DNA of 47,763 nt from Lachnoclostridium sp. An196 (lineage in GTDB: Bacteria > Bacillota > Clostridia > Lachnospirales > Lachnospiraceae). Below, one piece after another: positions 14,178 to 24,257 of the stretch. A model generated the notes under the pieces. That model saw only the letters and a list, made by a program, of their open reading frames with translations. It ran no database searches and was not told the DNA's origin. The stretch spans positions 1 through 47,763 of the forward strand of contig NZ_NFJZ01000017.1 of the NCBI RefSeq assembly GCF_002160135.1. Direction: 5' to 3'. The position numbers and the translations under genes were made by a program. Within the stretch, counting starts at the first letter, position 1; each line of letters starts with the position of its first letter.

Positions 14178-15467
14178 TCACGCCTCCTCTGGCGGGTTCA
14201 TACCAAAACTTAATTGCCCCTCTATCTGGGTGTCCGTTTCGGACATATCACCTGTATGCCCCGTTACTTCAATCCCCAAAATACAATAACCCTCTGCCAG
14301 CCCGGTATAATCTTGCAGCATATAGGTAATATCTGCGCTTATTGTGCGCCCTGTAAATTTCCCGTCTTTAAATTCCAGCATATTAAGGCTTTCTCCCGCC
14401 TTATAGCCTCTGTCATTTTTTCGCAGTTCAAAACGCTTTTTCCCGCTTACTACGTCGTCATAATACGTTGCTGCAATCTTTATATCATGTACCTTGCTCC
14501 CCGTTCCCCTGTCGCTCGGTAAATGCTCCATTTTCTCCCGGTCTGCCTGCTCCCGCAGCTTCTTTTTTGTCTCCCGGTCTATTTTGTCCTGCTCCTCACT
14601 ATATCGCTGCTCCTCCGTCTTTTCTGCCTCTGCTTTATCTATGTACTGGTCGCATTTCTCGCAGGTTCCCGTCTTTACGTTGCAGTCCTTATAATGCAGG
14701 CAGGAATAGCACAGGGACGTTATGCTTTCCGGGTGCGGCGTTTTGTAATCGTCCCCGGCTTTTTTCTCTGCCGCCTTTGCCGCTATCTCTTTTGCCCTTA
14801 TGTCTGCGCCTGCTGCCGCCTGCTCCGCTATCTCTTTTTGCTCCTCTGGTGTCAGTTTTGCCGCCTCATACGCAGCGGATATGCCTATATTCCCCTGTGC
14901 AAACTGCTCTTTAATCTCCGGCGTGGCATTTTTGTTGATACTATCCATTCTGGCTACGTTTGTGCTGCTCTCATTCATCAAATCCGCGATAACATCCCGC
15001 AGTTTTCCGGTAATCTCTAATCCGTCCTCTTTCTTCGCCCTCAAAAGCGCTTCTTTGAGCTTCTGCGCCTGCTGCGTTTTCTCCCACGGTGTAAGCTCCC
15101 TGTTATATGCGTTTCCGATAATCAGCGACAAGTCCAGCATGGCCGCTGTCATATCCTTGTAAAGATAACGGACGCGCTTATATTCTTCATGCCCCCGTTC
15201 AAGGTTCATAATATTTGCAAGGTTTCTGCGGTGTCCGCTTACTATGCGAAACTCTCCGTTTATCCTCCCCAGTACCGTAGGCTGCTGCTGGCCTACTGCT
15301 AAAAAGCTGTCTGCCAGCTCCTCTATATTCTCCTGTGAGTAAAAATTATTTTCGGACGGTTTTACATCATGCGGATTTAACCAGATTTCCGTATAATCCG
15401 TAACCGTTCCTGCTCCCGCCGCCTTGCTCTTTGCGTTCAAAATGTCATTAAATCCAAACTTTGCCAT
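14178..15467 (-). CDS. parB: ParB-family protein fused to a DUF3850/ASCH-like domain
   Basis: Residues ~25-175 are a ParB/Spo0J nuclease-like N-terminal domain (IWLNPHDVKPSENNF, QQQPTVLGRINGEFRIVSGHRR) and HTH region. Residues 253-272 contain five Cys (C253, C256, C262, C269, C272) that could hold a metal. A charged coiled coil follows. Residues ~326-401 (VHDIKIAATYYDDVVSGKKRFELRKNDRGY..) match DUF3850, an ASCH/PUA-like fold. The protein ends with DMSETDT, encoded inside a palindromic repeat. ParB binds parS and works with ParA, encoded two genes upstream, in DNA segregation or gene regulation. The C-terminal fusion is unusual; the domain could bind RNA or a nucleotide, which is inference. 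Confidence 0.87.
   Translation of the reverse strand: MAKFGFNDILNAKSKAAGAGTVTDYTEIWLNPHDVKPSENNFYSQENIEELADSFLAVGQQQPTVLGRINGEFRIVSGHRRNLANIMNLERGHEEYKRVRYLYKDMTAAMLDLSLIIGNAYNRELTPWEKTQQAQKLKEALLRAKKEDGLEITGKLRDVIADLMNESSTNVARMDSINKNATPEIKEQFAQGNIGISAAYEAAKLTPEEQKEIAEQAAAGADIRAKEIAAKAAEKKAGDDYKTPHPESITSLCYSCLHYKDCNVKTGTCEKCDQYIDKAEAEKTEEQRYSEEQDKIDRETKKKLREQADREKMEHLPSDRGTGSKVHDIKIAATYYDDVVSGKKRFELRKNDRGYKAGESLNMLEFKDGKFTGRTISADITYMLQDYTGLAEGYCILGIEVTGHTGDMSETDTQIEGQLSFGMNPPEEA
14229..14249. repeat. Repeated palindromic site, copy 2
   Basis: Identical over 21 bases to 5761-5781, core TGTCCG-TTT-CGGACA. It lies in the 3' end of the phage parB gene, which makes it a candidate parS or regulatory operator for ParB. 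Confidence 0.75.
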
Positions 15468-17119: not shown

Positions 17120-17887
17120 CTATCCTCCGTCCTTTTCGATTTCTACAAGCGTATATCTGAAATATCCGTACCCGTAATAATCCGGGCTGTGTATTCCCTT
17201 GCTTACGCTGTCCTTATCCACGTAATACCCTTTTATCGCCCTCGGCTCTGCCTTAAACCATGCGCGCTCTGTTATTATCCTTATCTCCGGCTCCGGCCTC
17301 ACAAGGTTCTTGCTGCAATTCCAGCGCTTACCCTGTAGCGCCCCGTCCTCTTTCGTTCTATGCTTGTCCGTATACTTGATAAAATAGCTTGCCAGCTTCG
17401 CATAATTCCCGGTATCGTCCAGCGGAAAAACCTTTACCCTGTTGTGCCCCTCATAAGCCTTATACCAGCACTGCTGCAATACCTTTGTGTCTATCTGGTT
17501 TATGACAAGGTGGTGGTGCCTTGCCCCTTTTTCGCCTATCTCCATAACATGTATGTACTTAAGCTCTTTCCCCTGTCTCCTGTACTCTTTCCGCAGCTCC
17601 CGCAGGAATATATCTATATCCTCCCGCATTTGCTCCCGGCTCCTCGGCTCCTTTCCTTTCTCCCGTATGTAGTCCAGTATGACGTGATAATCTCCATAGC
17701 CAAAATTAGCGTTCATCAGGATACGCAGCTTTCTTTCTGCCTGTCTGGTGTTTACCTTTACCTGCTGCTCCTTTGTGGGCTTAACCTTATCCCCTCTCTT
17801 TATCCCCGGCTTTTTATATCTGCTGGTAAAGTAACGCTCTACCTCTATGGTCTTTCCAGCCCTTGTTATCCTCTCTACGTATGGCAT
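17120..17887 (-). CDS. HUH-endonuclease replication protein
   Basis: Residues ~108-130 (LKYIHVMEIGEKGARHHHLVIN) contain the HUH motif (His 124-126), and NYAKLASYFIKYTDK (~161-175) carries Tyr and Lys placed like the nicking Y motif (Y168, Y172, K171). The N-terminus (~1-50) is basic. This layout resembles rolling-circle Rep proteins, especially the VP4/Rep group of microviruses and small plasmids, which nick the origin and join to the 5' end. In a siphovirus it would replace the usual replisome genes; none were seen. Start ATG 17887 has GGAGG ten bases before it. A hairpin and antisense RNA candidate lie in its leader. Confidence 0.78.
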   Translation of the reverse strand: MPYVERITRAGKTIEVERYFTSRYKKPGIKRGDKVKPTKEQQVKVNTRQAERKLRILMNANFGYGDYHVILDYIREKGKEPRSREQMREDIDIFLRELRKEYRRQGKELKYIHVMEIGEKGARHHHLVINQIDTKVLQQCWYKAYEGHNRVKVFPLDDTGNYAKLASYFIKYTDKHRTKEDGALQGKRWNCSKNLVRPEPEIRIITERAWFKAEPRAIKGYYVDKDSVSKGIHSPDYYGYGYFRYTLVEIEKDGG

Positions 17888-17934
17888 ATATATTTATCCT
17901 CCCTGTCGGATAGTTAATACTTTTATCAAGTGGT

Positions 17935-17955
17935 AAAACGGGCATTTCAGCCCGT
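17935..17955 (-). terminator. Candidate transcription attenuator in rep leader
   Basis: Minus-strand ACGGGC-TGAAAT-GCCCGT followed by TTTACC: a short GC-rich stem with a weak T tract, 48 bases ahead of the rep start codon. It sits between the antisense-RNA target and rep, where ctRNA-controlled attenuators lie in plasmids such as pT181 and pIP501. Confidence 0.45.
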
Positions 17956-17963
17956 GTAGTTCC

Positions 17964-17992
17964 TTGACTTTTCGCCATACAATGCTTATACT
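17964..17992 (+). promoter_or_regulatory. Promoter for antisense RNA opposite rep leader
   Basis: TTGACT, exactly 17 bases, TATACT on the plus strand: five of six consensus matches in each box. It is one of the best sigma-A-type promoters in the window, points away from rep, and no protein ORF follows before a terminator 30 bases later. Confidence 0.72.
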
Positions 17993-17998
17993 GGATTT

Positions 17999-18056
17999 AG
18001 GTTGAAAAGCTGTATAGCTTAGCCCCTATGGTATTCCCGTACCGTAGGGGCTTTTT
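17999..18056 (+). ncRNA. Candidate ~58-nt antisense (ctRNA-like) RNA
   Basis: Between the strong plus-strand promoter and TTTTT at 18052-18056 there is room only for a short RNA. It would contain a small stem (AAGCT-gtat-AGCTT, 18007-18020) and a 13-pair terminator stem (AGCCCCTATGGTA with TACCGTAGGGGCT, one G-U pair). It is complementary to the leader of any rep mRNA read from the right. By analogy with plasmid ctRNAs it could limit Rep synthesis and copy number. Promoter and terminator are seen directly; the function is inferred. Confidence 0.55.
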
Positions 18057-18071
18057 ACTGTTGTCATGGAT

Positions 18072-18278
18072 TTACAGGCGTTTTGCCGCTTTCTTTTTGC
18101 GGATTGCCTTAATCTGCGCCAGCAGGCCGTTTTCTGCGGCTTCTGCCGCCTTATGGCGTTTCAGCTCCTTGTAATCCGCCCACAGACTGCGGAAAATTGC
18201 AATACTCTTTCCGTTCTGCCCGTAATGGCTCAATCTGTTTGCCTCATTTCTCAATACTGCCCGTCTTAATTTCCTCAT
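18072..18278 (-). CDS. Small basic protein of unknown function
   Basis: Sixty-eight residues, strongly basic (MRKLRRAVLRNEANRLSHYG ... IKAIRKKKAAKRL), mostly helical. It ends 16 bases from the antisense RNA terminator and is the last gene before rep. Unrecognised; nucleic-acid contact is possible from charge alone. Confidence 0.6.
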   Translation of the reverse strand: MRKLRRAVLRNEANRLSHYGQNGKSIAIFRSLWADYKELKRHKAAEAAENGLLAQIKAIRKKKAAKRL

Positions 18279-24072: not shown

Positions 24073-24104
24073 ATTTCCTGCCTCTCTTTCGTGGATAAAA
24101 AAAT

Positions 24105-24141
24105 AAGCGCGTCCAGAGATTTTTAGTCTCTAAACGCGCTT
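24105..24141 (-). terminator. Two-tier hairpin, terminator-like, before first phage gene
   Basis: Outer stem AAGCGCGT/ACGCGCTT, 2-base bulges, inner stem AGAGA/TCTCT. On the minus strand ATTTTTTTA follows, and on the plus strand TTTCATTTT, so it may stop RNA from both sides. It lies 33 bases before the first phage start codon. Confidence 0.6.
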
Positions 24142-24162
24142 TTCATTTTCCTGTATATAAAA

Positions 24163-24207
24163 AATGAAATTCGGCTTGAGATTTAATATCTCCTGTCGAA
24201 TTTCATT
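24163..24207 (-). terminator. Second two-tier hairpin at prophage edge
   Basis: Outer stem AATGAAATTCG/CGAATTTCATT (11 pairs), 4-base bulges, inner stem GAGAT/ATCTC. On the minus strand TTTTTATA follows. Same architecture as 24105-24141 with different sequence. The prophage boundary (att) should lie near here but no duplicated core can be tested within this window. Confidence 0.55.
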
Positions 24208-24227
24208 CTAAAACTTATCAAACTAGA

Positions 24228-24257
24228 ATAACATATATCTGTGATATATGTTATAAT
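24228..24257 (+). promoter_or_regulatory. xdhC promoter overlapped by a 27-bp palindromic operator
   Basis: An extended -10 (TG-T-TATAAT, 24249-24257) is overlapped by a perfect 12-base inverted repeat, ATAACATATATC and its complement with a TGT spacer (24228-24254). No good -35 is present. A dimeric regulator bound here would block RNA polymerase. Arms ATAAC..ATAT recall ModE-type sites, but the regulator is unknown. Confidence 0.68.

What the first reader, a model, noticed from the sequence alone, without database searches (positions are those of the whole stretch)
17935..18056. Possible ctRNA and attenuator controlling the phage Rep, as in pT181/pIP501 plasmids
Opposite the rep leader lies a strong promoter (TTGACT-17-TATACT), 58 bases of non-coding sequence and a perfect terminator. 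Between its target and rep is a minus-strand stem followed by T. This matches antisense-RNA attenuation of rep genes in Gram-positive plasmids, which to my knowledge is not a usual feature of tailed phages.
Basis: partly seen in the sequence, partly recalled or inferred. Interest (0 to 1): 0.7.

Follow-up and report, generated by a model that had tools for sequence, protein, structure and literature searches.

The report
Antisense RNA switch on phage replication
Phages of gut bacteria appear to make a tiny RNA opposite the start of their replication gene that tips the gene's message into a shape hiding its start signal, much as some plasmids limit their copy number.

Summary
The promoter, ~58-nt RNA and terminator opposite rep are real and conserved: an automatic scan found promoter and terminator in 51 of 54 related leaders; the hairpin covaries strongly. 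A counter-transcribed RNA (ctRNA) is well supported, though no transcript was observed.

The pT181/pIP501-type attenuator is not supported. Its 'stem plus T' sits beside a conserved CTTGATA nick motif, so it probably belongs to the replication origin. It persists in 4 of 4 relatives judged to lack the ctRNA, is absent from 7 of 54 that have it (one clade), and has no anti-attenuator partner.

Instead the leader holds three elements: A (in the ctRNA target), B (in the ctRNA promoter's spacer), C (rep start, AUG-CCA-UAC). B can pair with A or C; both pairings coevolve. In silico, A:B forms in 27 of 30 nascent leaders, B:C in 29 of 30 when the ctRNA-covered part is blocked. Best reading: a ctRNA-driven switch masking the rep start codon, as on plasmid pSK41, here on a rolling-circle Rep of mostly ParAB-bearing tailed phages. 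Against: 19 of 30 full-length free leaders also prefer B:C, so the switch must be co-transcriptional; it was not found in 22 more distant leaders.

The parts
17120..17887 (-). rep: HUH-type rolling-circle replication initiator (255 aa)
   Evidence: PF23343 REP_ORF2-G2P E 4e-15; phrog_3584 replication initiation protein E 9e-65; H124 H125 H126 and Y168, K171 invariant in the 10 sequences aligned
17879..17885 (-). element C: GCCATAC, i.e. the G of the rep AUG plus codons 2-3 (CCA TAC)
   Evidence: exact 7-bp inverted repeat with element B; coevolves with B
17898..17903 (-). probable rep Shine-Dalgarno GGGAGG
   Evidence: sequence reading
17903..17932 (-). probable double-strand origin, CACTTGATAAAAGTATTAACTATCCGACAG, nick expected in CTTG^ATA
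   Evidence: CTTGATAA and ATTA invariant in the 31-leader alignment, also present in leaders without ctRNA; CTTGATA is the Rep_1 dso nick motif in PMC10378824 (passages); the cut position within it is recalled
17938..17955 (-).
   Evidence: present in 4 of 4 ctRNA-less leaders, absent in 7 of 54 ctRNA leaders
17964..17992 (+). ctRNA promoter TTGACT-17-TATACT
   Evidence: conserved
17974..17981 (-). element B: TGTATGGC (anti-start), lying inside the ctRNA promoter spacer
17999..18056 (+). predicted ctRNA, 58 nt (start inferred 7 bases after the -10 box)
   Evidence: length 56-105, median 58, over the 51 leaders scanned
18011..18018 (-). element A: GCTATACA, inside the ctRNA target, pairs with B
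   Evidence: exact A...B pattern occurs once in the window, mean 0.00 in 100 shuffles
18021..18056 (+). ctRNA terminator hairpin and T-run; loop UUCCC
   Evidence: 11 of 13 pairs show changes on both sides

Best explanation
A ~58-nt ctRNA transcribed from the plus strand represses translation of the phage's rolling-circle initiator through a co-transcriptional three-element switch. While the leader is being made, A pairs with B (A:B), so when the rep start (C) emerges it is free and is translated. If a ctRNA has bound its target, A is occupied, B stays free and pairs with the start codon and codons 2-3 (B:C), and Rep is not made. More element copies give more ctRNA and less Rep: negative feedback on copy number. 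Supported by sequence evidence: the ctRNA unit, its conservation, the two coevolving pairings. Inferred: that the RNA is made, that binding triggers the switch, that copy number is what it controls.
For: Conserved promoter + terminator opposite rep. Hairpin: 11 of 13 pairs with changes on both sides in 31 leaders; with A:B, covariation score 0.345 vs 0.159 shuffled, 0/500. Swap test on 30 leaders under 80% identity: native A:B and B:C stronger than any of 20,000 permutations; A:C control p 0.79. B:C changes on both sides in 4 leaders: L093, L098, L115, L118; L118 has A, B and C changed together, on different branches of the Rep tree, some weakly supported. Deviations in sense orientation are G-U rather than A-C: B:C 23 vs 2, A:B 24 vs 10. 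Folding: A:B in 27 of 30 nascent leaders; B:C in 29 of 30 with the ctRNA-covered part blocked. ParA match in 47 of 53 ctRNA loci, 0 of 4 ctRNA-less. An exact A...B pattern in viral contigs: 23 of 45 hits beside a Rep relative, each just upstream of the nick motif and an ATGCC.
Against: No RNA data. Equilibrium folding of full-length leaders does not give a simple switch: start-codon pairing rises by >0.2 on blocking in 2 of 26 leaders, and 19 of 30 free full-length leaders already prefer B:C. RNAalifold on the same alignment predicts only the hairpin, not A:B. For B:C the number of pairs with changes on both sides is not above shuffles (167/500), since MPY codons fix most of C. The swap signal is also present, with weaker energies, in the antisense orientation. 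Of the 24 G-U cells in A:B, 21 are one pair, probably inherited. In 22 more distant leaders A:B was significant in 6 and B:start region in 0. The 54 leaders were picked by eye from 85 distinct ones.
Confidence: 0.65

Rival explanations
1. pT181/pIP501-type transcription attenuation: ctRNA binding lets the GC stem + T before rep form and stop transcription.
For: A 6-bp GC stem followed by TTTT lies between target and rep and similar stems occur in most of the 54 leaders.
Against: Stem present in 4 of 4 leaders without ctRNA, absent in 7 of 54 with it (one clade of the Rep tree); 5' arm has no coevolving partner upstream (p 0.46); 1-6 T, mostly 3-5, in the 10 bases before the nick motif. The nick motif directly follows.
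Confidence: 0.1
2. The antisense RNA exists and lowers Rep by plain duplex formation (RNase III cleavage, transcriptional collision), without the A/B/C switch.
For: ctRNA-like promoters extend to distant Reps where the B:start pairing was not found; no dedicated rep promoter was evident (2 of 29, 1.6 expected), so convergent transcription is likely.
Against: Does not explain the coevolution of B with C and of A with B.
Confidence: 0.15
3. Single-strand origin: the plus-strand RNA is a primer for lagging-strand synthesis made on the displaced strand, the conserved hairpins being sso structures.
For: The displaced strand would be the rep-sense strand and the unit lies just upstream of the nick, where an sso is often found (recalled); A:B sits on that strand.
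Against: A normal double-stranded promoter and a strong intrinsic terminator are kept; CS-6-like TAGCGW (recalled motif) in 1 of 54 leaders; B:C with the start codon has no role in priming.
Confidence: 0.06
4. A, B and C are DNA half-sites for a repressor or for Rep itself (operator model), not RNA pairing.
For: B lies in a promoter spacer; short inverted motifs can be operators; the swap signal is also seen in the antisense orientation.
Against: G-U over A-C bias in the sense orientation (B:C 23 vs 2; A:B 24 vs 10), which a double-stranded operator would not produce; C is largely fixed by MPY codons.
Confidence: 0.04

Closest known systems
pSK41/pSK1 staphylococcal RNAI (RepA_N theta plasmids)
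   [quoted passage not shown] binding induces a stem-loop that sequesters the ribosome binding site instead of attenuating transcription (review PMC5703833, passages).
   Different: Here 58 nt, target ends ~112 nt upstream of AUG; Rep is an HUH rolling-circle protein; the element is a tailed phage; the anti-start lies inside the ctRNA promoter; the origin lies between B and C. Sequences were not compared directly.
pT181 RNAI / pIP501 RNAIII attenuation
   Same: ctRNA opposite a rep leader; a competing upstream element (pre-emptor in pT181; PMC5703833, passages).
   Different: No attenuator-pre-emptor pair detectable; the pre-empted element here masks the start codon.
pC194/pUB110 antisense RNAs (Rep_1)
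   Same: Rolling-circle plasmids with the CTTGATA nick motif and an antisense RNA near rep proposed to block translation (passages).
   [quoted passage not shown] Rep is Rep_1, here PF23343.
pMV158 RNAII (with CopG)
   Same: Short antisense RNA with one terminator hairpin and a 5' tail inhibits translation of a rolling-circle repB (PMC4485353, abstract).
   Different: No upstream A/B/C switch is mentioned in that abstract; CopG was not sought here.
RNA-based origins of extrachromosomal mycobacterial prophages
   Same: Phages with parABS kept as low-copy plasmids; RNA-based replication systems (PMC7157519, passages).
   Different: There RNA-based systems serve initiation in phages lacking repA; here an antisense RNA faces a rep gene.

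Membership tests
pT181/pIP501 antisense transcription attenuation | antisense RNA complementary to the rep leader | tested here: met
   (sequence evidence only)
pT181/pIP501 antisense transcription attenuation | sense-strand intrinsic terminator belonging to the system, between target and rep | tested here: not met
   stem occurs without ctRNA (4 of 4) and is absent with it (7 of 54)
pT181/pIP501 antisense transcription attenuation | upstream sequence pairing with the terminator's 5' arm | tested here: not met
   native -7.99 vs permuted -7.97 kcal/mol, p 0.46, 27 leaders
pT181/pIP501 antisense transcription attenuation | known ctRNA family in Rfam | tested here: not met
   0 matches at gathering score in the window; at E<=10 over 17850-18150 5 weak matches, none named ctRNA
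pSK41-type antisense translational switch | antisense target upstream of, not covering, the start region | tested here: met
   target ends ~112 nt upstream of AUG (RNA start inferred)
pSK41-type antisense translational switch | antisense binding frees a leader element that sequesters the start region | tested here: inconclusive
   in silico B:C in 29 of 30 when blocked, but also in 19 of 30 free full-length leaders; 2 of 26
pSK41-type antisense translational switch | RepA_N initiator | tested here: not met
   only PF23343 matched at E<=0.01
pC194/pUB110 Rep_1 rolling-circle replicons | CTTGATA nick motif in the dso | tested here: met
   17924-17930, conserved; motif from PMC10378824 passages
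pC194/pUB110 Rep_1 rolling-circle replicons | Rep_1 protein family | tested here: not met
   Pfam scan gave PF23343 only, E<=0.01
pC194/pUB110 Rep_1 rolling-circle replicons | nicking and rolling-circle replication shown | not testable with these tools
   needs biochemistry
pMV158 RNAII/CopG | second regulator CopG cotranscribed with repB | not tested
   not sought

The most novel reading that the evidence does not exclude
Tailed phages of Lachnospiraceae and Clostridia carry their own class of plasmid-style copy-number control: a ctRNA-driven, co-transcriptional switch in which an anti-start element, written into the spacer of the ctRNA's own promoter, is held off the rep start codon by a decoy that the ctRNA removes. 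The rolling-circle origin lies inside the switch, and loop inversion of the ctRNA hairpin (seen between L116 and L117) creates new incompatibility types.
Probability: 0.5. Interest if true: 0.72.

Novelty: new variant of a known kind. Interest (0 to 1): 0.57.

Why it matters
If true, it gives a concrete mechanism for how a family of mostly ParAB-bearing phages keeps its rolling-circle initiator under control as a prophage, and predicts which such phages exclude each other (ctRNA loop and A/B/C types). It also shows a compact regulator in which one 8-base stretch serves as promoter spacer, anti-start and decoy partner. In the searches made (listings of an open-access library only) I recognised no paper describing an antisense RNA on a rolling-circle Rep of a tailed phage.

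Tried and rejected
Rfam search, whole window at gathering score and 17850-18150 at E<=10: no ctRNA family. Attenuator/pre-emptor pairing: rejected. Simple equilibrium switch: not supported, replaced by the nascent-transcript test. Extending the A/B/C switch to 22 distant leaders: not supported, A:B 6 of 22, B:start region 0 of 22. Dedicated sense promoter for rep: none evident, 2 of 29 vs 1.6 expected. dif-like site in the window: none with up to 3 mismatches. Solved structure for Rep: no sequence match at E<=1. tblastn in plasmids: 2 records, under 30% identity. RNAalifold did not find A:B.

Limits of the sets: 98 leaders, 85 distinct; 54 chosen by eye for the A/B/C class, 31 left out (4 without recognisable ctRNA, 27 more divergent); the representative sets (26 to 31 leaders) differ slightly. 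In one search the automatic promoter is a site other than the aligned one in at least L098, and L055, L058 and L093 were missed. Terminator hairpins counted by strand (27 of 30; G-U 39, A-C 1) were detected allowing G-U, so that count is biased. L018/L109 (same contig) has a stop inside rep; its leader was used, its Rep was left out of the protein alignment and tree.

Full report
Setting. Bases 1 to about 24.1 kb of the window are a tailed-phage region read mainly on the minus strand: terminase large subunit, portal, prohead protease, capsid, tail proteins, ParA- and ParB-like proteins and an initiator. From 24.27 kb chromosomal genes follow (XdhC, molybdopterin-binding domain). The initiator, rep (17120-17887, minus), matches PF23343 REP_ORF2-G2P (E 4e-15) and phrog_3584 replication initiation protein (E 9e-65). 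Whether this copy is integrated or an assembly join was not settled.

The observation. By themselves the promoter and terminator counts in the region are about what shuffles give, so I turned to relatives.

Relatives. Rep searches gave 23 and 53 viral loci, 43 genome loci, 15 phage records and 2 plasmid records. From, plus Butyrivibrio phage Arawn (L041) and the window, 98 leaders were cut, 85 distinct. A conserved order is seen, in rep-sense direction: covarying hairpin, A (GCYATAC), reverse of the -10 box, B (GTATGGC), reverse of the -35 box, GC stem, CACTTGATAA...TATTA, Shine-Dalgarno, AUG-CCN-UAY. I picked by eye the 54 that show it. The automatic scan found promoter and terminator in 51 of these 54; L055, L058 and L093 were missed. 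Predicted RNA length is 56-105 nt, median 58. Many distant leaders (Rep about 40-55% identical) also carry a strong plus-strand promoter such as TTGACT-17-TATAAT or TTGTTA-17-TATAAT opposite the leader; for L075, L078 and L085 the scan found none.

Is it more than chance? In 29 representatives a >=10/12 promoter is found on the antisense strand in 19 (1.8 expected) and on the sense strand in 2 (1.6 expected). In a 31-sequence alignment the hairpin plus A:B has 88.0% paired cells against 76.8% in shuffles and a covariation score of 0.345 against 0.159 (0/500 each); the hairpin has both-sided changes in 11 of 13 pairs, A:B in 3 of 8. RNAalifold on that alignment returned the hairpin only.

Why not attenuation. 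The stem 17938-17955 lies just before CTTGATAA, the nick motif of Rep_1-type double-strand origins (PMC10378824, passages). The stretch folds at -8.1 to -10.4 kcal/mol in the four leaders judged ctRNA-less (L041, L064, L111, L112; L041 and L064 are close kin) and only at -0.6 to -3.3 in L069, L116, L117, L120, L125, L126 and L127, which have the ctRNA unit and form one clade of the Rep tree; L074 is also weak (-2.7). Its 5' arm does not coevolve with anything upstream: native -7.99, permuted -7.97 kcal/mol, p 0.46 over 27 leaders. I read it as part of the origin.

The A/B/C switch. B is complementary to A and to C. Among 30 leaders under 80% identical, native A:B (-12.9 kcal/mol) and B:C (-15.0) beat all of 20,000 permutations of partners (mismatched means -11.0 and -13.3); the A:C control does not (p 0.79); single-leader shuffles give p<0.05 in 29 of 30 for each. 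The same test in the antisense orientation is also significant but with weaker energies (-10.4 and -12.9). Departures from Watson-Crick pairing in the sense strand are G-U more than A-C: B:C 23 against 2, A:B 24 against 10; 21 of the 24 are one U-G pair, probably inherited. In one search B:C is 95.6% paired (93.2% shuffled, 1/500), with both-sided change in 5 cells from 4 leaders, L093, L098, L115 and L118 (1.5 shuffled, 2/500); the number of pairs with such change is not unusual (167/500), as expected when codons Met-Pro-Tyr fix most of C. In L118 all three elements changed together: GCCTTAC, GTAAGGC, GCCTTAC. These four sit on different branches of the Rep tree, several with modest support or long.

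Folding. With full-length leaders at equilibrium the start codon is mostly paired whether or not the ctRNA-covered part is blocked; pairing rises by more than 0.2 in 2 of 26 close leaders and 1 of 14 distant ones. With the leader cut 20 nt before AUG, A:B forms in 27 of 30; full length, A:B in 8 and B:C in 19 of 30; with the ctRNA-covered part blocked, B:C in 29 of 30. So the sequence supports a co-transcriptional decision: A:B first, then either translation or, if ctRNA holds A, B:C. This timing is inference.

Context. ParA-like matches follow rep in 47 of 53 ctRNA loci and ParB-like in 44; many of these loci are near relatives of one another; of the 6 without ParA, L055 and L062 are cut short downstream; 0 of the 4 ctRNA-less loci have either, with 3.3-5.0 kb downstream held. 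Arawn has only been seen to grow lytically, though its authors find signs of possible temperance (PMC7372960, passages). An exact A...B pattern in viral contigs hit 45 stretches: 23 beside a Rep relative, with the nick motif 29-42 and ATGCC 82-109 bases downstream; the other 22 have no Rep relative and look like chance. In more distant leaders (22 tested) A:B is significant in 6 and B with the start region in 0: the switch as described belongs to the closer clade, the antisense promoter to a wider one.

Comparison. Closest in working is the pSK41 RNAI: an antisense RNA against a leader ~100 nt upstream that makes the start region be sequestered without attenuation (review PMC5703833, passages). 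It is not a member: the initiator is PF23343, not RepA_N. It shares the nick motif with pC194-type origins but not the Rep family. No Rfam family matched. I rate it a new variant of a known kind. Novelty searches saw only listings of an open-access library.

Verdict. ctRNA opposite rep: about 0.85 likely from sequence. A/B/C translational switch as its mode of action: 0.65. Attenuation: 0.1.

Noticed in passing
L116 and L117, leader hairpin just upstream of element A: Two near-identical leaders carry the ctRNA hairpin loop in opposite orientation (sense loop TTCCCG in one, CGGGAA in the other) with unchanged arms and nearly unchanged flanks: a loop inversion that could change ctRNA specificity.
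   Followed up: partly
window 24090-24250 (minus strand): At the right edge of the phage, a promoter-like stretch is followed by two terminator-like hairpins in tandem before the first phage gene; possibly an antitermination or regulatory leader (read by eye).
   Followed up: no
L057 (record AP018536.1, searched as G061): No hit of PF00589 or PF00239 within about 69 kb of this chromosomal rep, so how this prophage entered the chromosome is unclear.
   Followed up: no
ctRNA terminator loops, many loci (e.g. L067, L074, L029): The loop is often UUCCC/UCCC in the ctRNA (GGGA in the sense strand) even where the stem sequence is wholly different; possibly a kissing-loop motif.
   Followed up: no
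window 14178-15467 (minus): ParB-like protein whose C-terminal part matches DUF3850/ASCH.
   Followed up: no
L018 and L109 (same contig): The rep gene has a stop codon inside it, by sequencing error or decay.
   Followed up: no
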